Shown here one piece after another: positions 5,147-42,826 of a stretch of DNA of 43,176 bases (positions within the stretch are counted from its first letter, which is position 1; each line of letters begins with the position of its first letter). The notes beneath the pieces were generated by a model. That model had not been told where the DNA came from, ran no database searches, and saw nothing but the letters and a program-made list of their open reading frames with translations. This DNA is from a virus: positions 1 through 43,176 of the IMG/VR virus record IMGVR_UViG_3300023301_000025. One strand, written 5' to 3'. Both the position numbers and the translations under genes were made by a program.

Positions 5147-5195
5147 GTAATTAGGAGCAAGAAAAAATAAAAATTAGTAATTAAAATATAATATA

Positions 5196-5228: not shown

Positions 5229-5305
<77 letters not shown>

Positions 5306-5317
5306 AGGGAGGATGTT

Positions 5318-5708: not shown

Positions 5709-5942
5709 ATGGAAAGTGGCAACAACAGAATCCAGAAGCTAGTGATGGGACTGAAATCAGAGGGTATCGTGTCTACCCATCATAATTACAACACTAGAGA
5801 TTTACATACTTTAAACGCATTAATTGAGAATGAACAGGATTGGAAAGAATATGTTGCAGTGTGGAAAGGCAATGAACGTAAGTATCACTTATCCTACATA
5901 TTGTTACTATTTAAGAGAGATAAGGAAAGAGAGCGAGCTTAA
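5709..5942 (+). CDS. small protein, unknown
   Basis: A 77-aa protein behind AAGGAG. It starts MESGNNRIQKLVMGLKSEGI and ends in a basic tail (LLFKRDKERERA). It sits just upstream of the MazF-fold gene but has its own leader, and a separate promoter lies between them. It does not look like a MazE antitoxin: I see no AbrB-type swapped-hairpin pattern. Confidence 0.55.
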   Translation: MESGNNRIQKLVMGLKSEGIVSTHHNYNTRDLHTLNALIENEQDWKEYVAVWKGNERKYHLSYILLLFKRDKERERA

Positions 5943-5965
5943 ACGATGAATTTTAAGCTCTTAAA

Positions 5966-5981
5966 GATAAAATATAATATA
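5966..5981 (+). repeat. recurring AT-rich motif, one mismatch
   Basis: GATAAAATATAATATA, 24 bp after the stop of the 77-aa gene and starting 29 nt before the -35 of the MazF-like gene's promoter. Confidence 0.75.
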
Positions 5982-5994: not shown

Positions 5995-6023
5995 TTGACA
6001 ACGTATTCATTATAGTTTATAGT
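5995..6023 (+). promoter_or_regulatory. promoter of the MazF-like gene
   Basis: TTGACA at 5995-6000, 17-bp spacer, TATAGT at 6018-6023. The predicted start is near 6030, giving a leader of about 40 nt before the ATG at 6069. Confidence 0.75.
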
Positions 6024-6068: not shown

Positions 6069-6662
6069 ATGGATAGAGAGAAGACTACTGATTTGAAGTC
6101 AGTAAGTGTTAAAAGAGGATGTATATACTTATGTGATTTGGGCATCGTGGAAGATTCTGAGCAAGGCGGTATAAGACCTGTATTAGTAATTAAAAACCAA
6201 AAAGGCTGCGATTGCGGAACTGTAGTTACTATTGTTCCAATCACAAGCCGAATTAACAAAGGATACTCTCTTCCTACACATGTATCTGTGGGAGAAGAAT
6301 CGGGATTGATTGTTGATAGCGAACTTATGATAGAACAAATAAAAATTATTTCAAAAAGAAAATTGTTATTCAATGGTAAACTAAGACCTGTTGGTGAAGT
6401 GAGTGACGAAATTATTAAAATGGTACAAAGTTCCATACTAAAAGACTTAGGGTTTGTGAATCTGTATTTTAGTGAGGTAGAAGCTTTTAGATTACTTGAC
6501 GCTTTCACTGAGATACGTAGAATCCCTAATCTAGTACTGGCTAAACGTCTCATCCTAAATGAGTTTAAGGATTATTGCGGACTGTATAACAAGGACTACA
6601 ATGCGATTTACAGAATGTACACAGAATCACAAATTAAGCGAGCAAATGCAAAGATTGCTTAA
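6069..6662 (+). CDS. MazF/PemK-fold endoribonuclease-like protein with C-terminal extension
   Basis: A 197-aa protein from ATG 6069, 11 nt after AAGGAG. Residues 14-115 follow B. subtilis MazF almost motif by motif: VKRGCIYLCDL, SEQGGIRPVLVIKNQ, TIVPITSRI, LPTHV, VDSELMIEQIKIISKRKL. The usual catalytic Arg (R36 in GGIRP) and Thr (T59 in PITS) are present, so RNA cleavage is possible. Typical MazF proteins are 110-120 aa; about 80 extra residues follow (DAFTEIRRIPNLVLAKRL...). No antitoxin gene is recognisable next to it. It is transcribed alone, between the small control-region genes and the YopQ/MrpR-like operon, so a regulatory role or a non-classical toxin is possible. Confidence 0.85.
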   Translation: MDREKTTDLKSVSVKRGCIYLCDLGIVEDSEQGGIRPVLVIKNQKGCDCGTVVTIVPITSRINKGYSLPTHVSVGEESGLIVDSELMIEQIKIISKRKLLFNGKLRPVGEVSDEIIKMVQSSILKDLGFVNLYFSEVEAFRLLDAFTEIRRIPNLVLAKRLILNEFKDYCGLYNKDYNAIYRMYTESQIKRANAKIA

Positions 6663-6704: not shown

Positions 6705-6733
6705 TTGACATTTAAGGGGATAAAATATATAAT
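6705..6733 (+). promoter_or_regulatory. near-consensus promoter of the YopQ/MrpR-like operon
   Basis: TTGACA at 6705-6710, 17-bp spacer, TATAAT at 6728-6733: the best sigmaA match in the window. A motif copy with one mismatch (GATAAAATATATAATA, 6719-6734) overlaps the -10, and a diverged copy lies upstream near 6680-6694. A protein binding the motif here would directly block RNA polymerase. Confidence 0.85.
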
Positions 6734-6816
6734 AATTTAATAAGGTTGAAAACAAAAAATTCTGTCAATTGGAAATTAATTTTAACCTTTTTTGTATTAG
6801 AAGGGGGATGGTAAAA

Positions 6817-8145
6817 ATGCTACAAGAGAGATATGATTTAGAAAAAAAATTAGACGGTGTTCTTGAAGAGTATAATCCAAATAAGAAAATGCGAGATGTG
6901 CTTAAAACTCAATTGGGGAAACATGGGATTCTTAACAGTGAGTTTCAACAAGTTTGGCTTAGGAATACTTCGCTAGACGGAGTTGAGCTACCTTTAATTT
7001 ATCTATTGACAAAGTACCTATATGAAAGAACAGGAGAATCTTCAATTGAAACCTCTAAATATTTTACTGAGACAGAAATAAAAGATGGAGATATCTATGT
7101 AAGAGAAGTCGTTGACGAGACTCTGGAATATCCAATAACGTTTGAGGATGTTCTAAGATGCCGAGAAGACCAATATAATTTTTATCTATCTATTCAACAA
7201 ATAAAGAAATTATTAGATAGTAAGATAATAACATACAACTTTGATACGCAAAGGTCGCCAAAACATAAGGTTAATAATGATGGTGGTTTGATTAAAGTTA
7301 TTAATATAAATCGACAAGCTGTAAAAGAGATAACAAAAGACCTGCTTGAAAATAATTTTATTACTAATTGCATAACGTTCAATTTACTACAAGATGGAAA
7401 GGATAGTTTCGTTTATAACGAAAAGAAAAATGAGTTAACTATCCTATCTGGCGAAGTCAATGTTATTGATGGGTTTCATCGGTGTTTGAGCATGATAAAT
7501 GCACTCTCAATCAATCCAAACTTAGAATACATTACAGAAGTTAGATTTACTAATTGGGGGGTTGAGAAATGTAGGAACTTCATATTTCAAGAAGATAAGA
7601 AAAACAAAATTAACAAACGCTATATCCAGTCCGTTGTAAACACAGGAAAATGGGGCAATAAAGTAATTGGAAAATTAAATGATGGAAACGGTGACTTAAA
7701 AGGTAAGATTACAACAGATTTTGCATTAGTAAAAATCAACAAAGCTTTCACTATGTTCGACTTTATGTCGAATGCTGTAGATACTCTTTGGGATATAAAA
7801 ACAAACATGGACGTAAGCAATTTATCAAACTATCTAACAGACTTCTTTGACCATATTATAGGATATAAAGCCGAAGACTTTGTTGAAGACGTAGGAAAAT
7901 CTAGGGAGAAAAGTGTTGTTACCATGCCGGCTATGTTTATTGGGTATTTATCACTAGCTAAAAAGTTACAAGACGACCCAAATAAATATGAAAAACTGGA
8001 AGCTTTTTTAAATAAAACTGATTTTAATATTGAGAGTCAAGAGTGGCTAAAACTTAACATAATTAATAGAAGTAAAAAGCCAACTATCACCTTAAATAAA
8101 TCAAACGTTAAGAACATTATTAACTACTTTAATGAGCTAGTATGA
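6817..8145 (+). CDS. DGQHR-type protein, SPbeta YopQ-like
   Basis: ATG 6817 lies 9 nt after AAGGGGG; the in-frame ATG at 6808 touches the ribosome site. The 442-aa protein contains TQR at 144-146 and VIDGFHRCLSM at 216-226. This is the QR...DGxHR signature of the DGQHR/DndB-like group, which includes the DndB repressor of phosphorothioation operons. Length and the partner downstream resemble, from memory, SPbeta YopQ (about 460 aa), which precedes the repressor gene yopR/mrpR. It is the first gene of a two-gene operon with a very strong promoter. The biochemical role is unknown; a nucleotide- or DNA-binding regulatory partner of the next gene is my inference. Confidence 0.65.
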   Translation: MLQERYDLEKKLDGVLEEYNPNKKMRDVLKTQLGKHGILNSEFQQVWLRNTSLDGVELPLIYLLTKYLYERTGESSIETSKYFTETEIKDGDIYVREVVDETLEYPITFEDVLRCREDQYNFYLSIQQIKKLLDSKIITYNFDTQRSPKHKVNNDGGLIKVININRQAVKEITKDLLENNFITNCITFNLLQDGKDSFVYNEKKNELTILSGEVNVIDGFHRCLSMINALSINPNLEYITEVRFTNWGVEKCRNFIFQEDKKNKINKRYIQSVVNTGKWGNKVIGKLNDGNGDLKGKITTDFALVKINKAFTMFDFMSNAVDTLWDIKTNMDVSNLSNYLTDFFDHIIGYKAEDFVEDVGKSREKSVVTMPAMFIGYLSLAKKLQDDPNKYEKLEAFLNKTDFNIESQEWLKLNIINRSKKPTITLNKSNVKNIINYFNELV

Positions 8146-8161
8146 GAGGAGATGAGCACTT

Positions 8162-9148
8162 ATGTACAACGAGGAGTTGAAAGTAAGATTTTTTAGTGAA
8201 TACCCAGAAGCCACCGCAAAAGTATACCGAGCTAGTTTAATGCAGATTGATGATTCAGAAGAATTTTACAGGAAAGACGTTTTCAATTTTTCATTTGAGC
8301 AGCTCGATAATGCATTTAAGTCAATACAAGCAAAAACATTGTCAGCAGTTAGGAGAATAGTTAGTCCTGTGTTGGAGTATATTAGATGGGCGAACTCTGA
8401 GGGGTTTGTTCCTACAAAGATTGGTATTACAGACCTGTTCATGGGAGAGAAGCTTAATGATTATGTTTGGAAACAAGCACAGCAAAGTAGCTATATAAGA
8501 AGAGAGGAAATGTATGGGCTATGTGAATTTCTAGCTAACGCTGTAGATAAGACTGTTCTAGTCCTAGCATATGAAGGTATTAATGGAAGAGAAAATTTTG
8601 AGATGTTGAATTTAAAGTTTAGTGATATTGATTTCTCTAGTAAAACGATAAGAGTTACAAATATTGATGGCGAGGTAAGAGATGTCTTTATAGAAGACCA
8701 AGAGACATTGGATATATTGAAAGAGGCAAGGAGAGAGAGTAGTTACCTATTAGGTAATGGAGATAGCCCTAGAAGCAAACGGAAAGAGTTTGATTTAGTT
8801 GACACCCCCTATGTTATAAGGAAAATAAATAGACGAAGAGATGCATATGATAATGAAGTAGTTACCATTGGATTCCTACTTGGGAAAGTAACTAGAATTT
8901 TTAAAGGTAAAAAAGATAGAGCGACAGGTGATTATACTGAAGAACCTTATCTATCCGACTGTGAATTTTTAAATTTAACAACTCTTTCCAAAAGCGGATT
9001 TTTTGACTACTGTATGAGACTGGAAGAAATAAAAGGTGAATTAAGCACCTTAGATTATGAAAAAGCATGTATAAGATATGGAATTAATAGAGGGAACTTA
9101 CAAAGTTATAAAAGACAATATTTAGATTGGAAACAAAGTGCAAGATAA
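8162..9148 (+). CDS. tyrosine-recombinase-fold protein, candidate MrpR-like lysogeny repressor
   Basis: A 328-aa protein, second gene of the operon, 16 bp after YopQ-like. Residues 1-110 form a helical core-binding-like domain. Residues 135-157 (YEGINGRENFEMLNLKFSDIDF) match box I of tyrosine recombinases, R143 included. The later HxxR box and an obvious nucleophilic Tyr context are missing (LNLTTLSKSGFFDYCM occupies the place), so strand exchange is unlikely. SPbeta MrpR (YopR, about 325 aa) is a repressor with exactly this decayed recombinase fold, and it follows yopQ. The C-terminal YGINRGNLQSYKRQY segment fits that family as I recall it. An ordinary but divergent integrase is the alternative. 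Confidence 0.65.
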   Translation: MYNEELKVRFFSEYPEATAKVYRASLMQIDDSEEFYRKDVFNFSFEQLDNAFKSIQAKTLSAVRRIVSPVLEYIRWANSEGFVPTKIGITDLFMGEKLNDYVWKQAQQSSYIRREEMYGLCEFLANAVDKTVLVLAYEGINGRENFEMLNLKFSDIDFSSKTIRVTNIDGEVRDVFIEDQETLDILKEARRESSYLLGNGDSPRSKRKEFDLVDTPYVIRKINRRRDAYDNEVVTIGFLLGKVTRIFKGKKDRATGDYTEEPYLSDCEFLNLTTLSKSGFFDYCMRLEEIKGELSTLDYEKACIRYGINRGNLQSYKRQYLDWKQSAR

Positions 9149-9166
9149 TTTCTTGCCTTTTACATA

Positions 9167-9182
9167 GATAAAATATAATATA
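9167..9182 (+). repeat. recurring AT-rich motif, one mismatch
   Basis: GATAAAATATAATATA, 18 bp after the repressor-like gene and starting 29 nt before the -35 of the ligase promoter: the same spacing as at 5966 and 27031. Confidence 0.75.
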
Positions 9183-9195: not shown

Positions 9196-9224
9196 TTGAC
9201 AGCTACTAAGTGAGGTGTTATTAT
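9196..9224 (+). promoter_or_regulatory. promoter of the DNA ligase / replication region
   Basis: TTGACA at 9196-9201, 17-bp spacer, TATTAT at 9219-9224. It is the first promoter after the repressor-like gene, so it may start the early/replication transcript. Confidence 0.75.
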
Positions 9225-11548: not shown

Positions 11549-11551
11549 ATA

Positions 11552-11567
11552 AATAAAATATAAAATA
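11552..11567 (+). repeat. recurring AT-rich motif, one mismatch
   Basis: AATAAAATATAAAATA lies 4 bp after a stop codon and runs straight into TAAGGAG, the ribosome site of the transglycosylase gene. No -35 box follows. Confidence 0.75.
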
Positions 11568-12770: not shown

Positions 12771-12836
12771 ATTACATAAGATTTGTATAGAGTAGATTTG
12801 TAACCATTATAGAAATAACTTTAAATAAATCATAGA

Positions 12837-12852
12837 GATAAAATATAAAATA
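12837..12852 (+). repeat. recurring AT-rich motif, perfect copy
   Basis: GATAAAATATAAAATA in the 150-bp gap before the SSB-like gene. No clear -35/-10 pair is seen at the usual distance downstream. Confidence 0.85.
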
Positions 12853-13851: not shown

Positions 13852-13854
13852 AGA

Positions 13855-13870
13855 GATAAAATATAAAATA
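13855..13870 (+). repeat. recurring AT-rich motif, perfect copy
   Basis: GATAAAATATAAAATA, 4 bp after the SSB stop and 27 bp before the AAAGGAG of the next gene. No sigmaA promoter follows. Confidence 0.85.
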
Positions 13871-13909: not shown

Positions 13910-14920
13910 ATGGATTTAACTAACCCCCCTATAACAGTTGTTGAAAAATCAACACAGGGAAAAACCATGCTATGGTATGGTGACAATAGAACTGGGAAGA
14001 CTGCCAATGCAGTGAAAATGCCAAGACCTTTTGCCGTTGCTTTTGAAAACGGATTGAACGCTATTGCCGGCTTACCTTTTTGGCAACCTACAAAATGGAA
14101 AGAAGCCAAAGATATATTAAAAGAATTTAAAAGACCAGAAGTAAAGGCAATGTATGACACTATTTTACTAGATACATTAGAAAAAGCAGGAAGAATGCTT
14201 ATTAAGTATATCTGTGCAAGACATGGTGTAGATAAGATTGGCGATGCCAATAATGGGTTTGGTGCGTATTCAGAAGTAGAGCAGGAGTGGGATGATTTTA
14301 TTACCGCTTTAGCCAATGAAGGATACACAGTTGTAATCATTGCACATGAGACTATGCAAATGCCAGTTGACGCAGAAACAGGGAAGAAGTATGAGAGAAT
14401 TGTACCAAAGGGAGATAAGAGAGTAGTGTCTTCAACTTGCGACTTAGTTGATATCATTGGATATTGTATGTCTAATGGATTTGATGAAGAAGGAAATGAA
14501 CAAATGTCTTCAATATACTTTAAAGATGCAAAACATTTTAAAGCAGGTTCAAGATGGACTAGTATCACTAAATCTGTAGTCTTCAATGTTCCAAATGTTA
14601 CAGAAGCAATCGTCAATGCAATAACAGCTCAAGAGGTGATTGATGGCTCAGAGCACTACACTGACAAAAAAGTAATTGCCGCTCCAGAAGTTAAAAAAAC
14701 TTTTGAAGAAATTGTAGATGAGATTAAAGTTCAAGGTGGTGTCCTTAAAGAAAAGACTGGTTCATTCGCACTCTTTACAGAGATGGTTGAAGCCAAGCTT
14801 GGAGAAGGGGAAAAAGTAAGCGGCTGTACCGTAAAGCATAGAGAAATCCTTGAGGAACTTTTAGATGAGATGATTGAAAAAGCAGAAGCGCTAGATAAAA
14901 TTCAAGAAGAAACCAAATAG
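13910..14920 (+). CDS. Sak4-like RecA-fold ATPase
   Basis: A 336-aa protein. Walker A is GDNRTGKTAN at 24-33. The early PRPFAVAFENGLNAIAG and the TILLDTLEKAGR Walker B region match the phage nucleotide-binding (Sak4-type) family. Those proteins are short RecA/Rad51-core ATPases that promote single-strand annealing or exchange, often with an SSB partner encoded next door, as here. A C-terminal helical region (about 240-336) is highly charged. An intrinsic terminator follows at 14950-14985. In SPbeta a similar ATPase gene lies at the head of the yorG-yorL cluster, from memory. Confidence 0.8.
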   Translation: MDLTNPPITVVEKSTQGKTMLWYGDNRTGKTANAVKMPRPFAVAFENGLNAIAGLPFWQPTKWKEAKDILKEFKRPEVKAMYDTILLDTLEKAGRMLIKYICARHGVDKIGDANNGFGAYSEVEQEWDDFITALANEGYTVVIIAHETMQMPVDAETGKKYERIVPKGDKRVVSSTCDLVDIIGYCMSNGFDEEGNEQMSSIYFKDAKHFKAGSRWTSITKSVVFNVPNVTEAIVNAITAQEVIDGSEHYTDKKVIAAPEVKKTFEEIVDEIKVQGGVLKEKTGSFALFTEMVEAKLGEGEKVSGCTVKHREILEELLDEMIEKAEALDKIQEETK

Positions 14921-14949
14921 GAAATGGGTAAATAAAAATAAATAATAAG

Positions 14950-14985
14950 ACAAGGGGGAGAGATGTACCTCTCCTCTTGTTTTTT
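14950..14985 (+). terminator. intrinsic terminator after the Sak4-like gene
   Basis: ACAAG-GGGG-AGAG pairs with CTCTCC-TCTTGT around a short loop (ATGTAC), with a one-base bulge, followed by TTTTTT. The stem is GC-rich for this region. It separates SSB/Sak4 from the helicase-primase genes, though read-through is likely because the next gene starts 20 bp on without a visible promoter. Confidence 0.8.
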
Positions 14986-15004
14986 GGAAACGAGGTGTTA
15001 AAGC

Positions 15005-15523
15005 ATGGTCGAACCTAATCTTAAACCTAAAGTTGAGTATAGAAAAAAATGCCCTGTGTGTGGAATTATGAATCAGAAAGAAGCCACTACTTTATACAAC
15101 CAAAAGTACTTCTGTCCCGACTGTGTTGAAATATTCCGTATTGAAACTAAAGATAGGTTTGAGTTGATTGATTATATTATTGAGCTTTATGGTGAAGTTC
15201 CAAGTGCAGTAATATTCAAGCAAATCAAAGAGTACAAAGAAGAATATTCCTATACATATAAAGGGATGAAAGCAACTCTAAACTATTTTTATACGGTTTT
15301 AGAAGGGAATGATGTAATAGCTGGGACAGGGATAGGGATTGTTCCTTATTTATATAATGAGACAAAAAGATATTACAGTGATTTAAAAACAATAAAAGAT
15401 AGTGTGAAAAACACTGATTTTGACGAGATTAAAAAAATCAAAACTGTACATATAAAAAAGACGGATTTAAAAGGGAAAGAAAAGTACAAAGATATGGCTA
15501 TGATTGATATTAGCCAATTATAA
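15005..15523 (+). CDS. zinc-ribbon replication-cluster protein, unknown
   Basis: A 172-aa protein with an N-terminal C4 ribbon: C16/C19 (KKCPVCG) and C37/C40 (YFCPDC), followed by a helical region (ELIDYIIELYGEVP...) and a Lys-rich C-terminus. It lies immediately before the replicative helicase, the place of SPbeta yorH as I recall it. A helicase loader or adaptor role is plausible from position only. Confidence 0.65.
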   Translation: MVEPNLKPKVEYRKKCPVCGIMNQKEATTLYNQKYFCPDCVEIFRIETKDRFELIDYIIELYGEVPSAVIFKQIKEYKEEYSYTYKGMKATLNYFYTVLEGNDVIAGTGIGIVPYLYNETKRYYSDLKTIKDSVKNTDFDEIKKIKTVHIKKTDLKGKEKYKDMAMIDISQL

Positions 15524-15541
15524 CTATAGAAAGGAGTATGC

Positions 15542-17176
15542 ATGGGGAAAGTACAGCTAACAAGTTATGTGAATAAGCAAGCGATACGAGAAGTATTGGG
15601 CTGCTTTATTCAAAAACCTTCTTTAATGAGGGATTATAAAACATCTAAGAATGACTTTCCAGAAACGTTTCATAAACTTATATTTGCTTCGATGAGTAAT
15701 CTTTATAAAAACGGAGCTGAGAATATTGATGCAGTGGCTATAGACGAATACCTCTCACACTATGAAACACAATATAAACTATTTGAAAAGAATTTAGGGA
15801 CAGACTATATTAGCGATGTTGAAGAACTTGCCAATCCAGTGAACATTAAATATTACCATGACCAACTAAAAAAGTTCTCTCTTTTGAGAAGGTATGTTGA
15901 GTTTGGCGTTGATGTTTCAGAATATTTCAATCCTAGTGAAATTGACCCTGTTACTGTTGAAAATCAGATAGACAATCTGGACAACAGTTCAATACAAGAC
16001 ATAGTAAACCACTACAAAAAGAAGCACCTTGAAATAGTATCTCCATTTACAATATCAGAAGGTAGAGATGGAAAAAAAGCGGGAGTTGGGGGAGCTGAGC
16101 AAAAAGAGAAGTGGAAAAATGATACTGCTTGGGGAATAGGATATGCCAGTGCTTATCTAACAACAGCACTTCACGGTTTAAGGAGAGGAAGATTCACTGT
16201 AAAATCTGCCGGTAGTGGTATTGGTAAAACCCGTACTGCAATATCAGATATAGGATGTTCGTGTTCACCATACTTGTATGATAAGAAATTAGGGAAATGG
16301 TTAAGAAATGCAAACGGTATAGATAACGGAGTATTATACATAGGAACTGAAATGGAACTACTAGAAGAGATAGACCCTATCCTTTGGGCTTACATAGCTG
16401 ACGTAGCTCAAGACCATATTGAATTTAATATGTATGAGGAAGGTGAGGAGGCAAGAGTAGATGAAGCAATAAGGATATTAGAAGAAGACGCTAACATTTG
16501 GTTTGAATATGTTCCTCAGTATGACTCAGAAATGTTATACGAAATTGTTGAGGAGCATAAGATAAAACACAATATTAACCATGTATTTTTCGACTATATC
16601 CACACGACTGTTGAGCTGTTGAGTGAATTTTCAGCCCAATCAAAAACAAGGATGGTAGTAAGAGAAGACCAAGTTTTAGCAGGGTTATCAAGTAAATTGA
16701 AAACTCTTGCAAAAAGGTTTGATGTATCATTTGACAGCTCTACTCAAATCAGCGGTGATTATAAAAATGATAATAACAGAGATGAAACTATTGTGCGAGG
16801 TGCGAAAGCAATAATTGACAAAAGTGACAACGCTTTAATCGCAATGCCACCATCTGAAAAAGAATTGAAAAAGGTTGAGCCGATATTGAGAAGTATGATA
16901 GGATGCCCCACTCCAAATTTAGTATATTCTTTATACAAAAACAGAGGTGGGAAATGGAATAAAATCAAAATATGGCTTTATGTGGATTATGGAACAATGA
17001 GAACCTATGACCTGTTTGTAACAGACTATGAGTATCGCCTAGATGGTGACAAAGTTAAGGGAATGGAGAAAACGTATATCAATATAGAAGATGCTGAAGT
17101 AGTCAGTGAAGAACCAATTAAGATTCCCATTGACGCTCTGCCTAAGAAAATAATTGATGATTTGCTAGACGTTTAA
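15542..17176 (+). CDS. DnaB-like replicative helicase
   Basis: A 544-aa protein. The N-terminal helical domain (1-165) resembles DnaB N domains (IREVLGCFIQKPSLM...). The RecA-like motor has Walker A SAGSGIGKTRT (222-232), GTEME (268-272) and Walker B HVFFDYIHT (347-355), then arginine-rich RTMVVREDQVLAGLSSKLKTLAKRFDV, as in DnaB motif 3/4 regions. It would unwind DNA 5'-3' at the fork. It is followed by primase with a 12-bp gap; this pairing matches SPbeta yorI-yorJ. Confidence 0.85.
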   Translation: MGKVQLTSYVNKQAIREVLGCFIQKPSLMRDYKTSKNDFPETFHKLIFASMSNLYKNGAENIDAVAIDEYLSHYETQYKLFEKNLGTDYISDVEELANPVNIKYYHDQLKKFSLLRRYVEFGVDVSEYFNPSEIDPVTVENQIDNLDNSSIQDIVNHYKKKHLEIVSPFTISEGRDGKKAGVGGAEQKEKWKNDTAWGIGYASAYLTTALHGLRRGRFTVKSAGSGIGKTRTAISDIGCSCSPYLYDKKLGKWLRNANGIDNGVLYIGTEMELLEEIDPILWAYIADVAQDHIEFNMYEEGEEARVDEAIRILEEDANIWFEYVPQYDSEMLYEIVEEHKIKHNINHVFFDYIHTTVELLSEFSAQSKTRMVVREDQVLAGLSSKLKTLAKRFDVSFDSSTQISGDYKNDNNRDETIVRGAKAIIDKSDNALIAMPPSEKELKKVEPILRSMIGCPTPNLVYSLYKNRGGKWNKIKIWLYVDYGTMRTYDLFVTDYEYRLDGDKVKGMEKTYINIEDAEVVSEEPIKIPIDALPKKIIDDLLDV

Positions 17177-17188
17177 GGAGGATGTGAA

Positions 17189-18316
17189 ATGTATGATAAA
17201 GAGTCCATCCTTGAGAAGATAACTGAAGAAGACGTTCTGGAAATAATGAAGAATTTTAATGCGTTCCCATTTGGAGAGTTCAAAGAGAATGAGATATGGT
17301 TCAGCACTGTTTGTCATGGAGGAGGTAGCCATAAGCTATGCTATTTCAGAGATTCAAAAACATTTAATTGTTATACCAATTGTGGGAAAATGAGTCTGTT
17401 TGATTTTGTAGCTAAAGTTGCAAATTGCAAAACCTTTGGGGAATCATTAGGTTTTGTTGCAAATGCAATAGGGTTGAATAGTAGAGTGGGGTTTAATTCA
17501 AAACCTATCTACAACAGTAATAAACGAGAGCTTTCTGAAATAAACAAATACATAGCGATGAGAAACAAAACCCGAACATCTTTAACCCATTTACCACCAT
17601 TTGACACTGGGAAACTTTTAGACTATTTTGAAAGCGATGTGTTTTATAATGGATGGGTTAATGAAGGTATTTCTATCTCAACAATGGAATTTTTCAAAAT
17701 AAAATGGTATGAGTTAGAAAAGCATATTATCATTATGCATTTAAATATGCTAGGGGAAATTGTGGGTGTTAGAAGACGTAGTTTACAGGAAAGAGATAAG
17801 GCTAATAAATATATGCCAGTGATTGTTGAAGGTGTGGTTTATAAGCACTCTCTCAATAAGAACTTTTACGGGCTATATGAGCATTTAAAGGGTATTAAAA
17901 AATTCAAAAAAGTTGTGATTGTAGAGTCAGAAAAGAGTGTTCTATTGGCACATGAGTATTATGGTGAGGATGCCTTTGTTATAGCCACTTGTGGATTTAA
18001 CGTTAGCAACTGGCATAGAAACATACTATTAACTTTAGGTGTTAAGGAAGTGATACTTGGATTTGACAAGGACTTTGAGGTATTGGATTTTGAAGACTCT
18101 GGTGATGACGAGAGCGATGATTCTGCTAGGTTTGACCATTATGTTAAACGTTTATACTCAATCGCTTATAAATTTGCACCGTTCTTCACAACGTATGTGT
18201 TATGGGATAGATTCGGGAAACTAGATAAAAAAGACTCTCCTTTTGATAAGGGGAAAGAGACATTAGAGTTTTTAATGAAAAATAAAGTTGAAATAACAAC
18301 TAATAGAGAGGACTGA
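17189..18316 (+). CDS. DnaG-type DNA primase
   Basis: A 375-aa protein. The N-terminal zinc module has C42, H43/H48, C51 and FNCYTNCG (C61, C65), as in CHC2-type primases. The TOPRIM domain shows VVIVESEKSVLLA (E246) and GFDKDFE (D293, D295), the metal-binding acidic residues for RNA primer synthesis. It is shorter than bacterial DnaG (about 600 aa), lacking a helicase-binding C-terminal domain. The gene sits between helicase and RecJ in one operon. Confidence 0.85.
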   Translation: MYDKESILEKITEEDVLEIMKNFNAFPFGEFKENEIWFSTVCHGGGSHKLCYFRDSKTFNCYTNCGKMSLFDFVAKVANCKTFGESLGFVANAIGLNSRVGFNSKPIYNSNKRELSEINKYIAMRNKTRTSLTHLPPFDTGKLLDYFESDVFYNGWVNEGISISTMEFFKIKWYELEKHIIIMHLNMLGEIVGVRRRSLQERDKANKYMPVIVEGVVYKHSLNKNFYGLYEHLKGIKKFKKVVIVESEKSVLLAHEYYGEDAFVIATCGFNVSNWHRNILLTLGVKEVILGFDKDFEVLDFEDSGDDESDDSARFDHYVKRLYSIAYKFAPFFTTYVLWDRFGKLDKKDSPFDKGKETLEFLMKNKVEITTNRED

Positions 18317-20248
18317 TTGGAATTAATGGAAAAATTAAAATATAAAGTTTTGCGTGATTATGAGTTTAGTACTGAAGATGATTTTTTAGATACCATACTA
18401 AAAGCCGCAGGAGTTGAGAATGTAAAAGAGTTTTTAAATGTTCGAAAGGGGCATACTCACGACCCATTCTTGCTTAAAAATATAAAAGAGGGAATAGAGC
18501 TACTGCACAATAGTATTGGAAAAGGCAAGAAAGTGTATCTACAAGTTGATTGCGATGTTGATGGTTACACTTCCAGTTCTTACATATATCAATTCATAAA
18601 AGAGATTGCACCGGATACAGAAATAGTCTATGGGATGCATTACAAAAAAGAACACGGTATATTTTTTACCGATATTGAAAAGATAGAAGGTTTAGATTTA
18701 ATCATAGTGCCAGATGCGGGTTCGGATTCAATCGAAGACTGTAAACAGATAAAAAAGGTTATGAAAGTTCCCGTGTTAATTATAGACCATCACGAAATAG
18801 TAAAGGAAATTTACAAATATGCTACACTTGTAAATTGTACAGATGGTGTTTATCCAAACAGAAATCTTTCTGGAGTCGGGGTAGTGCATAAATTTTGTTT
18901 AGCATATTGCGAACAGTATGAGCTTCCTATTGAAACATGTGATAGATATTTAGATTTAGTATCTTTAGGAATGATTGCAGATAGTATAGATATGCGAGAT
19001 TTAGAAACCCGTTATTATACATTAGAAGGATTGAAAGATGAGAACAAACACAATTCATTCATTAATGAGATAGCTGAACGTTTTGCAGAGGACATGAAGT
19101 TAGGGCATACTATTACATCTTATGGTTGGGTAATTGCACCAAAGATAAATGCAGTAGTTAGATACGGCAAAGAACAGGAACAAATTGACCTGTTTAGAGC
19201 CTTTATAGGTGAGTTTGATGATACGGTTTACCAACCTCGCAGAAAAGTCAAAACAGACCCTAAGCCAGAAACGGAAATACATAGTTTACAAAAAACAATG
19301 GCAAGAGTTGCAAGTAACGTAAAGCAACGACAGGATACACAGGTTAGGAATTTCATGGTAAAGCTTGATAGAAAAATAGTAGATGAGAAACTAGATAAGG
19401 ATAGTGTTATCATACTTGATGCCGGAGAGATTCTAACTGTAAAATCCGTAAGTGGTTTGGTAGCCAATAAGTTAATGGACAAATATAAACGACCAATTGT
19501 CATTTTAAAGCCAATGAGTACTGAGTTAGGGGATAAAGATGATGAAAATGAAGTGTTTGCAGATGATGGAAGTAAAGTACTTGTAAAAGATACGGCTACA
19601 CTGCTCGCAGAAGAGGATGCTAAAATTGAAAGATTTGGTGGTTCTGCTAGAGGTTTTGAAAGTGAAGCTATTCCAGATTTCAGACAATTCCTATTAGATT
19701 TAAACCTGTTTGATAAATGTGCAGGTCATCCTATGGCGTTTGGAATAGAGTTAAAAAAAGAAAATGTTCAAATAGCAAGAGATAAGTGTAATTCACTAGT
19801 CAATATTGACGACTTGGTAACTATACATGAAGTTGACTATTCCATAAAAGCTAAAAATCTAACCTCAAAAGGTATTGTAGATGTGGCGAATGCGTATCAG
19901 GTATGGGGGAATAAGGTAAGCGAACCAACCTTTGCTATTACTGATATTGATATCACAGGTGCGGATATTCTCGCCTTTGGTGAAAACAACGGATTTGTGA
20001 AGTTTAAGTATAAAGATATCGGCTTTATCAAAAAGTACTGTAAGAAGGGTGTGTATGAAGATATTTCTCTAAAGGACAGGAATACACTAGGAGAAAATAC
20101 TAAACCTTTAAAGTTAACTATAATAGGAACTTTTGTGTTTAATGAGTATCAAGGAGTCAGATACCCTCAAATTAATATTAAGAAATACTATACCGAGGAA
20201 AGGTTTGAAAAAGCAAGTGTAGACATGGACATTGATGATATATTCTAA
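18317..20248 (+). CDS. RecJ-like DHH single-strand exonuclease
   Basis: A 643-aa protein. I start at TTG 18317, 5 nt after GAGAGGA; ATG 18326 is possible but 14 nt away. DHH phosphoesterase motifs: VDCDVDG (D78, D80, D82), VPDAGS (D133) and IIDHHE (157-159). A DHHA1-type C-terminal half contains RFGGSARGFESEAIPDF and AGHPMAFGIEL. RecJ degrades single-stranded DNA 5'-3'. Placement directly before the polymerase matches SPbeta yorK-yorL and suggests a job in primer/Okazaki processing or recombination. Confidence 0.85.
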   Translation: MELMEKLKYKVLRDYEFSTEDDFLDTILKAAGVENVKEFLNVRKGHTHDPFLLKNIKEGIELLHNSIGKGKKVYLQVDCDVDGYTSSSYIYQFIKEIAPDTEIVYGMHYKKEHGIFFTDIEKIEGLDLIIVPDAGSDSIEDCKQIKKVMKVPVLIIDHHEIVKEIYKYATLVNCTDGVYPNRNLSGVGVVHKFCLAYCEQYELPIETCDRYLDLVSLGMIADSIDMRDLETRYYTLEGLKDENKHNSFINEIAERFAEDMKLGHTITSYGWVIAPKINAVVRYGKEQEQIDLFRAFIGEFDDTVYQPRRKVKTDPKPETEIHSLQKTMARVASNVKQRQDTQVRNFMVKLDRKIVDEKLDKDSVIILDAGEILTVKSVSGLVANKLMDKYKRPIVILKPMSTELGDKDDENEVFADDGSKVLVKDTATLLAEEDAKIERFGGSARGFESEAIPDFRQFLLDLNLFDKCAGHPMAFGIELKKENVQIARDKCNSLVNIDDLVTIHEVDYSIKAKNLTSKGIVDVANAYQVWGNKVSEPTFAITDIDITGADILAFGENNGFVKFKYKDIGFIKKYCKKGVYEDISLKDRNTLGENTKPLKLTIIGTFVFNEYQGVRYPQINIKKYYTEERFEKASVDMDIDDIF

Positions 20249-20249
20249 A

Positions 20250-20265
20250 GATAAAATATAAAATA
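20250..20265 (+). repeat. recurring AT-rich motif, perfect copy
   Basis: GATAAAATATAAAATA begins 2 bp after the RecJ stop and ends 3 bp before AGGAGG, the ribosome site of the polymerase gene, leaving no room for a normal promoter. Confidence 0.85.
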
Positions 20266-20279
20266 ATAGGAGGAAAAAT

Positions 20280-21794
20280 GTGAAAGATAAAGACAGAGAT
20301 AAAGATAAAAACAATTTAGATTTTATGAGTACGCATAATCATACAGAAGATTCTAATTTTAGATTAAAAGATTGTATCATTAGAGCTGAAGATTTGGTTA
20401 ATAGGGCAATTGAGTTGGGCTATAAGGGAGTATGTGTTACAGACCATGAATCATTATCTTCTCACATTCGAATCCTACAAAGGTACACTTTTCTTAAAAA
20501 GCTTAAAGTAAAATACTTAAATGCTGTTAAAAATAATGAATTGGGTGAAATCGAGAAGGATAAGGATATGAAGAAAAACTTATCCTTATTGAAGAAAATG
20601 CCGGATGATTTTAAACTTGGGCTTGGAAATGAGATTTACTTAATTGATGATATGAATGATGTCACAGTGAATTATGAATCCGGAGTCACTAAACACTGGC
20701 ATTTTATATTGATAGCAAAGAATAAAAAAGGACATGAGCAATTAAGACAAATCTCATCCCAGAGCGCTTGGAAAAACTGGTTTAGACAAGGTAGAGTGGA
20801 GCGTGTTCCAACTATTAAATCAGAGCTAGAGAACATCGTAGGGGATGATAAAGGGAATATTATTGCTACGAGTGCCTGTTTAGGTGGGGAGCTGCCTAAC
20901 CATATTCTCTCATATTTCAGAGATGGCAACCAAGAATCAAAAATAAAAATACATAACTTTATCACTTGGGGAATCAATACTTTTGGAAAAGAGAACTTTT
21001 TTATAGAGTTAGCTCCTACACTGGAATCTCCCCAAGAGGATATATTGGAAACACACTCACAAATTACGTTTAATAGAAATGCAGTTAAAATAGCAAAAAG
21101 CTACGGTTTAAAATGCACTGTAGCAACCGACAGTCACTATTTAGAGAAAGACCATAGGAAAGTCCATGAGGCGTATCTAAATGCCGATGATGATAACTCA
21201 AATAACAGAGAGTTAGGAGATTTCTACGCAACCACCTATATGATGGAGACAGAAGAGATAGTTGAGCTTTTGAGTAGCCATTTAGAATCGGAAGATGTAG
21301 AAGACTGTTTCAAAGGGACTATGGAGATTCACAGTATGATTGAAGATTACAATTTATCACATTCTGTAATTGTTCCTAGAGACAAGAACATTCCAGACTT
21401 TGAAGTAGTAGGTTTGTTTAAAGATTGGTATAAAGCTTGTCCTTATATCAAGCTATTTGCTGAATCTGAAGACATTCAAGAACGATATTTTTTATACAAA
21501 TGTGAAGAAGGGTTTGTAAATAAGAAACAATCTTTAAATGAAAAAAATATAAAACGTATCAATATAGAGATGGAAGAGATTTGGAAATCATCGGAGAAGA
21601 TTAATATGAGAATCGCTCCTTACTACATTCTAGTAGAAGCATTGGTGAATAAAATTATGTGGAAAGTCTCATATGTTGGGATTGCCAGAGGTAGCGTTAC
21701 AGGTTTTTATACTGCTTACCTAATGGATATTACACAAATGAATCCACTTGATTACAACTTACCACATTGGCGACATTTGAGTTCTGAAAGACCT
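20280..21794 (+). CDS. dnaE: DNA polymerase III alpha (DnaE type), exon 1
   Basis: Starts with GTG 20280 after AGGAGG. Exon 1 encodes 505 residues. The N-terminal PHP domain shows THNHTEDS (H19, H21), VTDHESL (about 52-58) and TDSHYLEKDHRKVHEAYL. The start of the palm follows, with ARGSVTGFYTAYLMDITQMNPLDYNL and ending HLSSERP. Splicing to 22137 gives SSERP-ELPDIDID and a predicted polymerase of 1,364 aa, a normal DnaE size. Without splicing, translation ends at a TAA in the intron after 507 residues. It is the replicative polymerase of the element and follows RecJ as in SPbeta yorK-yorL. Confidence 0.9.
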
Positions 21795-22136
21795 TTGGTA
21801 TAAGAGGGTCATGTAGTAGTAATATTACATAAAAACTTTGTGAACTGCTTGAATGGCAGGTGCACATCTTACGTTAGTAGCTATAGGAAATGATAGTTAA
21901 AAGATGTGCTAACAGGGGAAGCCTATAGCAACTGTCGTGAGACAGACGTACGGTAATCCTGTGCCAAGCTGTGCTACACAATAGCACGGAAGGTCTAACG
22001 ACTATCGAAAACACACCTAAAATATAGGTGGAAGTGAGTAGAGTAGAGCTGATTTAATCACAGTTCGAAGCGCAAAGCCCCATTTTAAATGGGTGAAGAT
22101 ATAGTCTATTCCCTATAGAAATATGGGGTAGAGAAG
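21795..22136 (+). other. ORF-less group I intron in the polymerase gene
   Basis: 342 nt with clear group I core elements: CGGTAATCCTGTGCCAAGC (21950-21970 region, P/Q), GAAGGTCTAACGACTATCG (R/S) and GAAGATATAGTCT (P8-P7 end). P1 is formed by 5'-exon GACCT (21790-21794) with GGGTC (21806-21810), giving the required U-G pair at the splice site. A P9 stem, CCCTATA-GAAA-TATGGGG, precedes the terminal G (22136). Removing exactly 21795-22136 restores the expected ERPELPDIDID. No homing endonuclease is encoded, so current mobility is unlikely. Confidence 0.93.
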
Positions 22137-24716
22137 GAATTGCCAGACATAGATATTGACACAGAAGCATCTAAGAGACATCAAATATTTGCTTCTATGA
22201 AAGAGTATTACGGAGTTGAGAATGTTCTTAATATTTTAACTCTAAAAACAGAAGGAACTAAAAGTACGGTTCAAACAGCATGTAGAGGTTTAGGAATAGA
22301 CAGCGACACTTCTCAATCTATTGCAGATATGATTCCGTTTGAAAGAGGAGCTAACTGGTCTTTAACTGATTGTTTTACAGGTAATGATGGGAAAGACAGA
22401 CATCCAGTTAAAGAGTTTATCGCTGAAATTGATAAGTATGAAGACTTAAAAGACGTAATGCTGATGATTGAAGGGTTAGTATGTGGAAGGTCTATACATG
22501 CTTCTGGTGTGTATATATTTGAAAATGGATACCTAGCACAGAACAGTAAAATGAAAGCCCCTAATGGAACTGACATCACAGCTTGGACTATGCATGACTC
22601 AGATTGGGCAGGAGGATTAAAGGTTGACTGTTTAACAATAAAGGCTTTAGATAAAATCCATACAACGGTAGACTTGCTTACAAAATACGGAATGATTGAA
22701 GCTGAAGGGACAATAAAAGAAACTTACACTAAATATATCCATCCAGACGTACTTGAATATAGAGATTCTGAAATGTGGAAAATGATAGCTGAGAATAGTT
22801 TGATTGATGCGTTTCAATTTGATACAGATGTAGGGTCAAACGCAGGTAAGAGAGTAAAACCAACGTCTTTGCCAGAGCTAGCAGTTGCAAACTCATTGAT
22901 GAGATTAATGGCTGATTATGGAGATGAACAACCTATTGATATTTATGTAAAGAATAAAAATGACATAAGCCTCTGGTATAAAGAAATGACTGAATGGGGA
23001 TTAACTGAAGAAGAGGTAAAAACTTTAGAGCCGCACTTACTTCCTGTTTATGGAGTGGCTGATACTCAAGAAGTTGTAATGAAATTAACGATGGATAAAA
23101 AGATTGCAAACTTTAATGTAGCAGAGGCTAATAAAATGAGAAAAGCTATTGCTAAAAAAGACCCTAAGATATTACAAGAGGTTCAAGACTTGTTTAGTGA
23201 AAAAGCAAAGGAGACAGGAACTAGGAATGAATTAATTTCTTATGTTTGGGGAGTACAAATCAAACGTCAGCTTGGGTATTCATTTTCCATGAACCATACT
23301 TTCCCCTACAGTGGGATATGCGTTCAAGAATTAAACCTTGCACATAGGTTTGATAAGATATTTTGGAACACAGCTTGCTTAACTGTAAATGCAGGAGCAG
23401 ATGAGAGTAATGAAAACAATAAAAATACGGAATACGGTAAGATAGCGAAAGCCATTGGAGAAATACAGAGTAAAGGTCAGATGATAGCACTTCCACATAT
23501 AAACAAAGCACAGTTTAGCTTTGCTCCAGATTTAACTACAAATGAAATAGTATTTGGGCTTAAAGGTATTTGTGGAATAGGTGATGATATTGCATCTGCA
23601 ATTATAGCCAACCAGCCATTTTCAAGTTTCAACGACTTTGTTATTAAAATGAAAAAGTACAAAGATAGTGACGCTGATAATAAATTTGGAGACAGTGCAA
23701 TTATTACTTTGATTAAAAGTGGTGCTTTTGATGAATTAACAGGTAAGAACAGAACTAAGATTATGGAAATGTTCATTAGAAGTATCTCAGAACCTTTGAA
23801 GAAATTAGATTTAAAACATATTCCTATACTTAATCAATTAGGACTACTGACAGAATCACAGACAAAGTTTGAATTAAGACTTTACGGTTTTAGGAAGTAC
23901 TTATATGCTCCTAAGTTTCTTGTAAAGCAGACCGGTAAATCTGACACCACAAAATATTACTCTTTAGACTCTAAGTTTGCAGAACCATTCTTCTTTAAGA
24001 ATTTTGAAACAAACATGATTGAGGATAAAGATTACGAGTATACGGAAGAGGGTTCAATTCTAGTTAAAAGAGGTAGTTTAGACAGAGAATATGATAAATT
24101 GGTCACACCTTTTAAAGAGAATACCCTAACTAAAAGCGATATTCTTGATAATGTCAATGAGTTTAGGTTCAAATCTAAGTGGGATGAAAAAGTAAGTGGA
24201 ACTATTTCAAAATGGGAAATGGACAGTTTATCATTTTACTACCATGAACATGAGCTTGAGTGTGTTGACAAAGAGGAAAACTTAATTGCTGATTATTATG
24301 AAATGCCAGAAATACCTATAATAACAGATAAGTATGTGTACAGAGGAAAAGAAAGACCAAGATTTCAGCTTTATAAAATTTGCGGAACAGTATTGGATAA
24401 AGATAAAAATAAAAGCACAGTAACAATATTGACACCCACAGGTGTTGTATCAGTTAAATTTTACAAAGGTCAATTTGGTTTCTACGACAAGCAAATATCT
24501 GAAGTTCTTGAGGGAGACACAAAGAAAACCGTTTTAGAAAAATCATGGTTCTCAAGGGGTTCTAAACTATTAGTAACTGGATTCAGAAGAGGAGACACTT
24601 TCATACCTAAGAAATATGTAGATTCAGCATTTAGACATACGTTGCAACTAATAACAGAAGTAAGTGATGGAGAATTAAAACTTCAAACAGAAAGGGCAGG
24701 ATACGAGGAGCAATGA
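22137..24716 (+). CDS. dnaE: DNA polymerase III alpha (DnaE type), exon 2
   Basis: 859 residues, starting ELPDIDIDTEASKRHQ. PDIDID holds the two catalytic aspartates of C-family polymerases, so the intron interrupts the gene one codon before its active site. Next come VENVLNILTLKTEGTKSTVQTACRGLG, a fingers region (GYSFSMNHTFPYSGICVQ), a helix-hairpin-helix-like stretch (FGLKGICGIGDDIASAI) and a C-terminal OB region (KICGTVLDKDKNKSTVTIL). An apparent TTG start at 22140 is only the spliced frame. The stop overlaps the start of the next gene (ATGA). Confidence 0.9.
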   Translation, partial: ELPDIDIDTEASKRHQIFASMKEYYGVENVLNILTLKTEGTKSTVQTACRGLGIDSDTSQSIADMIPFERGANWSLTDCFTGNDGKDRHPVKEFIAEIDKYEDLKDVMLMIEGLVCGRSIHASGVYIFENGYLAQNSKMKAPNGTDITAWTMHDSDWAGGLKVDCLTIKALDKIHTTVDLLTKYGMIEAEGTIKETYTKYIHPDVLEYRDSEMWKMIAENSLIDAFQFDTDVGSNAGKRVKPTSLPELAVANSLMRLMADYGDEQPIDIYVKNKNDISLWYKEMTEWGLTEEEVKTLEPHLLPVYGVADTQEVVMKLTMDKKIANFNVAEANKMRKAIAKKDPKILQEVQDLFSEKAKETGTRNELISYVWGVQIKRQLGYSFSMNHTFPYSGICVQELNLAHRFDKIFWNTACLTVNAGADESNENNKNTEYGKIAKAIGEIQSKGQMIALPHINKAQFSFAPDLTTNEIVFGLKGICGIGDDIASAIIANQPFSSFNDFVIKMKKYKDSDADNKFGDSAIITLIKSGAFDELTGKNRTKIMEMFIRSISEPLKKLDLKHIPILNQLGLLTESQTKFELRLYGFRKYLYAPKFLVKQTGKSDTTKYYSLDSKFAEPFFFKNFETNMIEDKDYEYTEEGSILVKRGSLDREYDKLVTPFKENTLTKSDILDNVNEFRFKSKWDEKVSGTISKWEMDSLSFYYHEHELECVDKEENLIADYYEMPEIPIITDKYVYRGKERPRFQLYKICGTVLDKDKNKSTVTILTPTGVVSVKFYKGQFGFYDKQISEVLEGDTKKTVLEKSWFSRGSKLLVTGFRRGDTFIPKKYVDSAFRHTLQLITEVSDGELKLQTERAGYEEQ

Positions 24717-27031: not shown

Positions 27032-27046
27032 ATAAAATATAAAATA
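27031..27046 (+). repeat. recurring AT-rich motif, perfect copy
   Basis: GATAAAATATAAAATA; its G is the last base of the RecD2 TAG stop. It starts 29 nt before the -35 of the promoter at 27060. Confidence 0.88.
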
Positions 27047-27614: not shown

Positions 27615-27629
27615 TAGAACGGTTTAGTA

Positions 27630-27645
27630 GATAAAATATAAAATA
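27630..27645 (+). repeat. recurring AT-rich motif, perfect copy
   Basis: GATAAAATATAAAATA between the hypothetical gene and the kinase-HD gene, 16 bp after a stop. No TTGACA follows; a GAGAGGG ribosome site comes 13 bp later. Confidence 0.85.
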
Positions 27646-31382: not shown

Positions 31383-31403
31383 TAAGAAGATACATATTAA
31401 CTA

Positions 31404-31419
31404 GATAAAATATAAAATA
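31404..31419 (+). repeat. recurring AT-rich motif, perfect copy
   Basis: GATAAAATATAAAATA followed within 4 bp by AAGGAG, the ribosome site of the next gene. No promoter boxes fit between. Confidence 0.85.
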
Positions 31420-33543: not shown

Positions 33544-33636
33544 ATGGGAAATACACTAAAAGGATTCTGGAGAAGAGTCAGATGTTTCATAGGGCGTAAG
33601 TATAATAATTTATTTTATTGTTATTTATATAGATAA
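33544..33636 (+). CDS. possible 30-aa basic peptide
   Basis: ATG 33544 immediately follows the previous stop: MGNTLKGFWRRVRCFIGRKYNNLF.... Basic and amphipathic, with no clear ribosome site, so it would rely on coupling. The stop lies within a perfect AT-rich motif. Real translation is uncertain. Confidence 0.3.
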   Translation: MGNTLKGFWRRVRCFIGRKYNNLFYCYLYR

Positions 33637-33647
33637 AATATAAAATA
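33632..33647 (+). repeat. recurring AT-rich motif, perfect copy
   Basis: GATAAAATATAAAATA starting 28 nt before the TTGATT -35 box of the promoter at 33660, within 1 nt of the spacing at 5966, 9167 and 27031. Confidence 0.85.
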
Positions 33648-36662: not shown

Positions 36663-36670
36663 ATTGTATA

Positions 36671-36686
36671 GATAAATTATAAAATA
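36671..36686 (+). repeat. recurring AT-rich motif, one mismatch
   Basis: GATAAATTATAAAATA, 8 bp after the reductase stop, followed at once by AAAAGGAG, the ribosome site of the dUTPase gene. Confidence 0.75.
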
Positions 36687-39349: not shown

Positions 39350-39353
39350 AATA
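39338..39353 (+). repeat. recurring AT-rich motif, two mismatches
   Basis: ATTAAAATATAAAATA overlaps the last codons and stop of the nucleotidase gene and is followed by ATAGGAG, the ribosome site of the kinase gene. Confidence 0.6.
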
Positions 39354-42390: not shown

Positions 42391-42399
42391 GAGTTTTTT

Positions 42400-42818: not shown

Positions 42819-42826
42819 AGTGAACA

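What the first reader, a model, noticed from the sequence alone, without database searches (positions are those of the whole stretch)
6705..9148. Candidate SPbeta-type lysogeny switch: YopQ-like DGQHR protein plus recombinase-fold repressor
Two genes of about 442 and 328 aa under the strongest promoter in the window. The second has recombinase box I but lacks the HxxR box, as does SPbeta MrpR. The motif copy over the -10 suggests autoregulation. If right, this extends the MrpR type of repressor to a plasmid-like phage, with a DGQHR protein (DndB-like) as obligatory partner of unknown role.
Basis: partly seen in the sequence, partly recalled or inferred. Interest (0 to 1): 0.75.

Follow-up and report, generated by a model that had tools for sequence, protein, structure and literature searches.

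The report
MrpR-type phage repressor with YopQ partner
Two neighbouring genes in this virus fragment are distant relatives of the repressor pair that keeps the Bacillus phage SPbeta dormant, but here the pair stands without the known phage "arbitrium" signalling genes and directly beside a phage-borne MazF-type RNA-cutting toxin gene, a layout shared by a whole clade of related phages.

Summary
8162-9148 (328 aa) is an MrpR/YopR/SroF homologue: Pfam MrpR_N_CB E 1e-15, PDB SroF and MrpR by sequence (1e-21, 4e-14), and an AlphaFold2 model whose best solved folds are phi3T SroF on DNA and SPbeta MrpR, far ahead of active recombinases. The catalytic arginines and histidine are missing. 6817-8145 (442 aa) is YopQ/SroE (DndB profile above cut-off, DGFHR motif). 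YopQ is always followed by a YopR: 80 of 80 viral loci found with YopQ alone, but YopR also occurs without YopQ. The window's strongest sigma-A promoter drives the pair, and one of 15 copies of a directional AT-rich element (0.2 expected) overlaps its -10. The element has the layout of SPbeta's MrpR operator SPBRE but does not match its sequence significantly, so operator function is inferred. AimR and YopM-P are absent. Instead an intact MazF-like gene (6069-6662) with an element-flanked promoter sits 150 bp upstream; all 'MazF-adjacent' loci tested fall in one supported YopR clade. Relatives there also carry AgrB between MazF and YopQ. A 59-60% identical pair lies in Anaerovorax odorimutans. 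New variant of a known kind; no function was tested.

The parts
6705..6733 (+). sigma-A promoter TTGACA-17-TATAAT of the yopQ-mrpR operon
   Evidence: only 12/12 match in the window
6717..6734 (+). AT-rich element copy GGGATAAAATATATAATA overlapping spacer and -10 (proposed operator)
   Evidence: PWM scan, repeat families D3/D4
6817..8145 (+). YopQ/SroE-like protein, 442 aa, DndB family, DGFHR at residues 218-222
   Evidence: PF14072 E 9e-8 above cut-off, phrog_5732 7e-84, tblastn to SPbeta yopQ, AF2 model pLDDT 86
8162..9148 (+). MrpR/YopR/SroF-like repressor, 328 aa, tyrosine-recombinase fold without catalytic set
   Evidence: PF22822 1e-15, phrog_5830 2e-51, PDB 9rd5 1e-21 and 8a0a 4e-14, fold search, residue table
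5964..5981 (+). element copy directly upstream of the mazF-like promoter
5995..6023 (+). promoter TTGACA-17-TATAGT of the mazF-like gene
   Evidence: 11/12 match
6069..6662 (+). MazF/PemK-like endoribonuclease, 197 aa, MazF core plus C-terminal extension of about 70 aa; Arg36 and Thr59 at the MazF active-site positions
   Evidence: PF02452 2e-20, PDB MazF 2e-17, residue positions
5709..5942 (+). small gene (77 aa) with a homologue directly upstream of yopQ in Anaerovorax odorimutans
   Evidence: blastp 36% over 67 aa, E 3e-7
5178..5195 (+). element copy directly before TTGACA of the promoter at 5196
9165..9182 (+). element copy upstream of promoter 9196-9224 and the NAD-dependent DNA ligase gene
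11550..11567 (+). element copy abutting the Shine-Dalgarno of gene 11581
12835..12852 (+). element copy
13853..13870 (+). element copy upstream of the YorG/Sak4-like gene 13910
20248..20265 (+). element copy abutting the Shine-Dalgarno of the Pol III alpha gene 20280
27029..27046 (+). element copy upstream of promoter 27060-27088
27628..27645 (+). element copy upstream of gene 27674
31402..31419 (+). element copy abutting the Shine-Dalgarno of gene 31435
33630..33647 (+). element copy upstream of gene 33731
36669..36686 (+). element copy abutting the Shine-Dalgarno of the dUTPase-like gene 36706
39336..39353 (+). element copy abutting the Shine-Dalgarno of gene 39371
13910..24716 (+). SPbeta-type replication module in the order of yorG-yorL (Sak4-like, YorH-like, DnaB, Toprim, RecJ, Pol III alpha in two ORFs)
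   Evidence: Pfam, SPBc2 map, same order in relative G003

Best explanation
The pair is a YopQ-MrpR (SroE-SroF) type lysogeny repression module of an SPbeta-related phage, probably of a clostridial host near Anaerovorax. In the lysogen the operon is read from the 6705 promoter. The 328-aa protein, a recombinase fold that has lost catalysis, binds a directional AT-rich element present in about 15 copies at promoters and translation starts of the phage's lytic, replication and nucleotide genes and keeps them off, together with the ParB/Srx-like YopQ protein. It limits its own synthesis through the copy on the 6705 promoter and also controls the adjacent mazF-like gene, whose promoter is flanked by a copy. 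SHOWN: homology, fold, loss of catalytic residues, operon layout, element enrichment and placement, conserved pairing. INFERRED: repression, the element as the operator, autoregulation, YopQ as co-repressor, control of MazF.
For: Profile, PDB-sequence and fold matches to MrpR/SroF at E 1e-14 to 1e-21, against 5e-5 and weaker for active recombinases; catalytic positions lost; YopQ-YopR adjacency in 80 of 80 viral loci, 31 of them below 80% YopR identity; 15 + strand and 0 - strand element copies against 0.2 expected; 12 of 15 copies sit before a Shine-Dalgarno or TTGA(C/T) against 26% of AT-rich control positions, the two placements seen for the experimentally bound SPBRE at yopM/yopV and aimR (PMC10516654); the same element family, with strand following gene direction, in the 139-kb relative G006; SPbeta yorG-yorL gene order downstream.
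Against: No binding or phenotype data exist. The element does not match SPBRE significantly (p 0.95), and its core is shared with G006 although the two YopR proteins are only 25% identical, which would also fit a promoter read by another conserved factor. The MrpR_C_cat profile scores below its curated cut-off (20 against 27 bits). The record is a fragment, so integration, structural and signalling genes cannot be judged.
Confidence: 0.8

Rival explanations
1. The AT-rich element is a phage-specific promoter (read by a YonO-like polymerase or a modified host polymerase) and not, or not only, the operator of the MrpR-like protein.
For: It is directional and abuts Shine-Dalgarno sequences; its core is nearly identical in G006 despite 25% identical repressors; it is not enriched in G005, which carries a 39% identical YopQ; a YonO-like polymerase lies next to the Anaerovorax pair.
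Against: SPBRE, with the same placement, is bound by MrpR in vivo (PMC10516654). Several copies sit just upstream of complete sigma-A promoters, where a second promoter would be redundant. No YonO-like protein was found in the window or in G006.
Confidence: 0.4
2. The mazF-like gene is an unrelated moron or addiction gene that happens to lie upstream, not part of the lysogeny decision.
For: Toxin genes are common in such phages; an AbrB gene and a PIN-like ORF precede the YopQ-YopR pair in the P. larvae plasmid; in E3, G006 and G012 MazF genes lie far from YopQ; the Anaerovorax pair has no MazF beside it.
Against: All MazF-adjacent loci tested fall in one supported YopR clade (98/97); MazF is the effector of the phi3T decision (PMC10769878); the gene's promoter carries the element in the PaimR layout; no MazE or ribbon-helix-helix antitoxin family match was found in the window.
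Confidence: 0.5
3. The 328-aa protein is an active tyrosine recombinase or integrase.
For: PHROG label 'integrase', recombinase fold, Tyr320 aligned with MrpR Y304.
Against: Arg I, His and Arg II positions are lost; Foldseek ranks the MrpR/SroF structures about eight to eleven orders of magnitude ahead of recombinases.
Confidence: 0.03
4. The 442-aa protein is a DndB regulator of DNA phosphorothioation rather than a co-repressor.
For: Pfam DndB above its cut-off.
Against: Its best relatives are YopQ proteins, always next to YopR. No Dnd genes were seen among the window proteins scanned, but not every ORF was scanned.
Confidence: 0.04

Closest known systems
SPbeta MrpR/YopR and phi3T SroF (phi3T_97), PDB 8a0a, 8bj6, 9rd5, 9rgl
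   Same: two-domain tyrosine-recombinase fold without catalysis, gene directly downstream of YopQ/SroE, repeated upstream elements in the phage genome
   Different: about 21-26% identical; a different repeated element; the homologue of K169 is D169; an extra insertion near residues 249-262 shared with the Anaerovorax copy
SPbeta repressor operon yopMNOPQR (sroABCDEF) with arbitrium aimR-aimP upstream
   Same: last two genes (Q, R) in the same order, upstream of the yorG-yorL replication module
   Different: no YopM, N, O, P or AimR homologue found; an own promoter directly before yopQ; a phage-borne MazF-like gene upstream
DndB / DGQHR proteins (PF14072), ParB-N/Srx superfamily
   Same: profile match, DGxHR motif, weak fold match to ParB/Noc N-terminal domains (E about 0.06)
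   Different: paired with a repressor, not with DNA-modification genes
Host MazF of B. subtilis as used by phi3T
   Same: MazF core with the Arg and Thr active-site positions
   Different: encoded by the phage itself next to the repressor pair, with a C-terminal extension
agr genes of C. difficile phage phiCDHM1 (PMC3901668)
   Same: phage-borne AgrB, as in relatives of this window
   Different: in the relatives it lies between MazF and YopQ-YopR; no agrB in this window

Membership tests
MrpR/SroF repressors | MrpR N-terminal core-binding domain (PF22822) | tested here: met
   58.6 bits against cut-off 27, E 1e-15
MrpR/SroF repressors | MrpR C-terminal domain (PF22823) | tested here: inconclusive
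   20 bits against cut-off 27, E 6e-4; phrog_5830 matches the full length at 2e-51
MrpR/SroF repressors | overall fold closest to MrpR/SroF | tested here: met
   AF2 pLDDT 89, pTM 0.75; top seven PDB hits are SroF/MrpR/YopR
MrpR/SroF repressors | loss of recombinase catalytic residues, C-terminal Tyr kept | tested here: met
   I140/N141, D169, T273, S276/K277; Y320 aligned with Y304
MrpR/SroF repressors | specific binding to a repeated element and repression of lytic genes | not testable with these tools
   element family found, no binding data
SPBRE operator of SPbeta (a feature of SPbeta itself, not required of the protein family) | operator sequence like SPBRE | tested here: not met
   PWM comparison p 0.95; a different element is expected for a 20-25% identical DNA-binding protein
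SPbeta sro operon / arbitrium locus | YopQ directly followed by YopR | tested here: met
   16 bp apart
SPbeta sro operon / arbitrium locus | YopM, YopN, YopO, YopP in the operon | tested here: not met
   no phmmer hit in the window
SPbeta sro operon / arbitrium locus | AimR/AimP upstream | tested here: not met
   no AimR hit in the window, including the 6.7 kb upstream; the record is a fragment
YopQ/SroE (DndB-like) | DndB profile and DGxHR motif | tested here: met
   31.9 bits against 29.1; D218, G219, R222 invariant in 31 YopQ sequences
MazF/PemK toxin | PF02452 with active-site Arg and Thr | tested here: met
   73 bits against 23; R36, T59 aligned with solved MazF
MazF/PemK toxin | adjacent MazE antitoxin | tested here: not met
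   no PF04014 or PF01402 match in the window

The most novel reading that the evidence does not exclude
In this clade the phage carries its own MazF effector inside the lysogeny locus under control of the MrpR-type repressor, so the decision circuit that phi3T builds from host MazF plus arbitrium is self-contained. In sister phages an agr-type peptide system (AgrB between MazF and YopQ-YopR) fills the slot that arbitrium occupies in SPbeta, which would make it a second peptide-communication system plugged into the same repressor.
Probability: 0.25. Interest if true: 0.85.

Novelty: new variant of a known kind. Interest (0 to 1): 0.55.

Why it matters
The yopN-yopR operon was reported as found only in B. 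subtilis SPbeta-like phages with arbitrium (PMC8612738). Here the two-gene core YopQ-MrpR is seen in a much wider set of phages and circular elements, many without arbitrium, and in a clostridial genome. It suggests that YopQ-MrpR is the ancestral lysogeny core onto which different input and output modules (arbitrium, agr, host or phage MazF) are fitted. That makes the open question of what arbitrium finally acts on testable in simpler relatives.

Tried and rejected
Operator = SPBRE by sequence: rejected as not significant. A regulatory hairpin in the yopQ leader: no more stable than shuffles (z 0.06). Rfam elements in the window: none at gathering thresholds. A MazE-like antitoxin in 5709-5942: no profile hit; it is instead a homologue of a small gene upstream of the Anaerovorax yopQ. 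Close relatives of the 328-aa protein or of MazF by single-protein scans of viral contigs: none. DNA-level relatives of the locus among phages: none. A solved structure of a YopQ homologue: none. An 11-member YopR alignment and wide YopQ alignments were too diverse for pattern scans. AgrB in the window: only a chance-level match inside the dUTPase-like gene. Unsupervised element discovery in E3, Perkons, G029 and G005 gave over-represented AT-rich words upstream of genes, but I could not separate these from ordinary leader composition, so they are not used. Papers naming SroF or SroE in the phage sense were not found by search.

Full report
Observation. The two genes, their sizes and their promoter are as described. 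The 12-of-12 sigma-A promoter at 6705-6733 is the best in the window. The downstream gene starts 16 bp after the upstream one ends. The second protein lacks HxxR. Its 'box I' is a look-alike: aligned to MrpR, the positions of the catalytic set read I140/N141 (Arg I), D169 (Lys), T273 (His) and S276/K277 (Arg II); E147 and Y320 are kept (reference residues from PMC10516654, Table 3).

Identity of the 328-aa protein. Pfam names MrpR_N_CB (1e-15) and, below cut-off, MrpR_C_cat (6e-4); PHROG 5830 matches over the full length (2e-51). By sequence the closest solved chains are 9rd5 (1.4e-21) and the SPbeta YopR/MrpR entries (about 1e-14). The AlphaFold2 model (30 sequences, pLDDT 89, pTM 0.75) is closest to 9rd5 'Phi3T SroF bound to DNA' (3.5e-16), 8a0a MrpR (4.5e-15) and 9rgl, the SroF-Sar repressor-antirepressor complex; active recombinases start at 5e-5. 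TM-scores are moderate (0.50-0.62), as expected when the two domains are free to move.

Identity of the 442-aa protein. DndB (PF14072) above cut-off, phrog_5732 7e-84, tblastn to SPbeta yopQ, phi3T_96 and Geobacillus E3 gp147. D218, G219 and R222 of the DGFHR motif, with Y140, Q145, R146 and N189, are invariant in 31 divergent YopQ sequences. Its model (pLDDT 86, pTM 0.46) has only weak fold matches, the best being the N-terminal CTPase domains of Noc and ParB (E about 0.06, probability 0.84-0.98). In phi3T the gene is sroE (PMC10769878). That SroE and SroF are both master repressors is from Brady et al. 2023, whose text I could not read (reference seen; content from memory).

How general is the pair. 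A scan of viral contigs with YopQ alone returned 80 loci; in 80 of 80 a YopR homologue follows within -88 to +79 bp, and 31 of these are below 80% YopR identity. The reverse is not true: YopR homologues without YopQ beside them occur in Thermoanaerobacterium, Alicyclobacillus KKP_3916, P. urinalis, BcoS-136 and 2S-4. In KKP_3916 a GmrSD_N protein stands in YopQ's place, and the P. larvae plasmid copy is short. The published statement that the yopN-yopR operon is restricted to arbitrium phages of B. subtilis (PMC8612738) therefore does not hold for its last two genes.

The repeated element. The core TAAAATATAAAATA occurs 15 times, always on the + strand (0.2 expected), mostly intergenic. Twelve of 15 copies are followed either by a Shine-Dalgarno sequence or by a TTGA(C/T) -35-like word, against 26% of AT-rich control positions. 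I re-derived SPBRE from nine of the ten promoters bound by MrpR in ChAP-seq: it shows the same two placements (before the Shine-Dalgarno at yopM and yopV; before TTGAC at aimR). The sequences, however, do not align better than shuffled columns (p 0.95). The 139-kb relative G006 has 48 copies of the same core (3.5 expected), on the - strand up to about 89 kb and mainly on the + strand beyond. SPbeta, E3, Perkons, G005 and G029 do not have this core enriched. So the element is real, directional and phage-group specific; that it is the operator is the best inference, and that it is a promoter is the main rival.

Surroundings. Downstream lie NAD-dependent DNA ligase, a transglycosylase, and then Sak4-like, YorH-like, DnaB, Toprim, RecJ and Pol III alpha genes in the order of SPbeta yorG-yorL (the same order in G003), further on a class II ribonucleotide reductase, a dUTPase-like gene and ParA. 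The window is thus a piece of an SPbeta-related phage. Directly upstream of the pair is a MazF-like gene (6069-6662) with both active-site positions, its own Shine-Dalgarno and a promoter at 5995 preceded by an element copy. In the tree of 38 YopR proteins the window, an Anaerovorax copy, G003 and the L061/L077/L078/L090 group form one clade (98/97) that holds every 'MazF within 3 kb' locus tested; arbitrium phages have none in their loci. No antitoxin of the MazE or ribbon-helix-helix families was found in the window. In phi3T, host MazF promotes lysogeny and arbitrium acts by controlling it (PMC10769878), so a MazF gene at this place is suggestive, not conclusive.

Relatives. In G003 and the L061 group an AgrB gene (1e-34 to 1e-37) lies between MazF and YopQ, in several members with a further membrane-like protein of unknown family. 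AgrB occurs in 12 of 36 YopQ-YopR records searched; by coordinates it is also directly downstream of YopR in G021 (one stop codon in the frame) and about 3 kb downstream in G030. Phage agr genes are known from phiCDHM1 (PMC3901668), but a link with MrpR-type repressors was not found in the papers I could search.

Host. The only genome hit with YopQ patterns is Anaerovorax odorimutans DSM 5092 (60% YopQ, 59% YopR), 1.4 kb from spoIVA and next to a YonO-family RNA polymerase (phrog_8308 1.7e-95). The YorL-type polymerase of this phage has no good match there (29%). A clostridial host near Anaerovorax is likely but not shown.

Verdict. The finding is a new variant of a known kind: the YopQ-MrpR core without arbitrium and YopM-P, with a new repeated element and a phage-borne MazF. 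Regulation itself was not tested.

Noticed in passing
L077:8329-8961, L061:8219-8911, L090:8132-8773, L144:4627-5421 (G003 44627-45421): AgrB genes between a long MazF-like gene and YopQ-YopR in phages of the same YopR clade, in L077 and L090 with an additional membrane-like protein of about 280 aa; possible agr-type signalling in place of arbitrium.
   Followed up: partly
L139:5273-13200: Anaerovorax odorimutans chromosomal island with a YonO-like RNA polymerase (920 aa) divergent to a YopQ-YopR pair 60/59% identical to the window's, ending 1.4 kb before spoIVA; remnant prophage, satellite or immunity island.
   Followed up: partly
window 20280-24716: DNA polymerase III alpha gene in two ORFs (20280-21803, 22140-24716) with 336 bp between, while relative G003 has one ORF (90322-94002); no Rfam intron at gathering threshold.
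   Followed up: partly
window 5229-5313: About 20 tandem ATAG units between the promoter at 5196-5224 and the 65-aa ORF 5318-5515; a possible phase-variable spacer.
   Followed up: no
window 42362-43161: Upstream of the divergent parA-like gene: about 330 bp of GTATAC/GTGTAC-type 8-bp repeats, then five 22-bp iterons AAAGGTAACTCAATGACTGTT and inverted 31-bp copies; looks like a centromere or replication origin of a plasmid-like prophage.
   Followed up: no
L006:4567-5778: Alicyclobacillus phage KKP_3916 has a GmrSD_N (PF03235) protein in the place of YopQ upstream of its YopR homologue.
   Followed up: partly
L007:3461-3931: P. larvae plasmid pPLP3: an AbrB/MazE-family gene followed by an ORF that looks like a PIN-domain toxin, about 1.2 kb upstream of its YopQ-YopR pair; another toxin-antitoxin module near the switch.
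   Followed up: no
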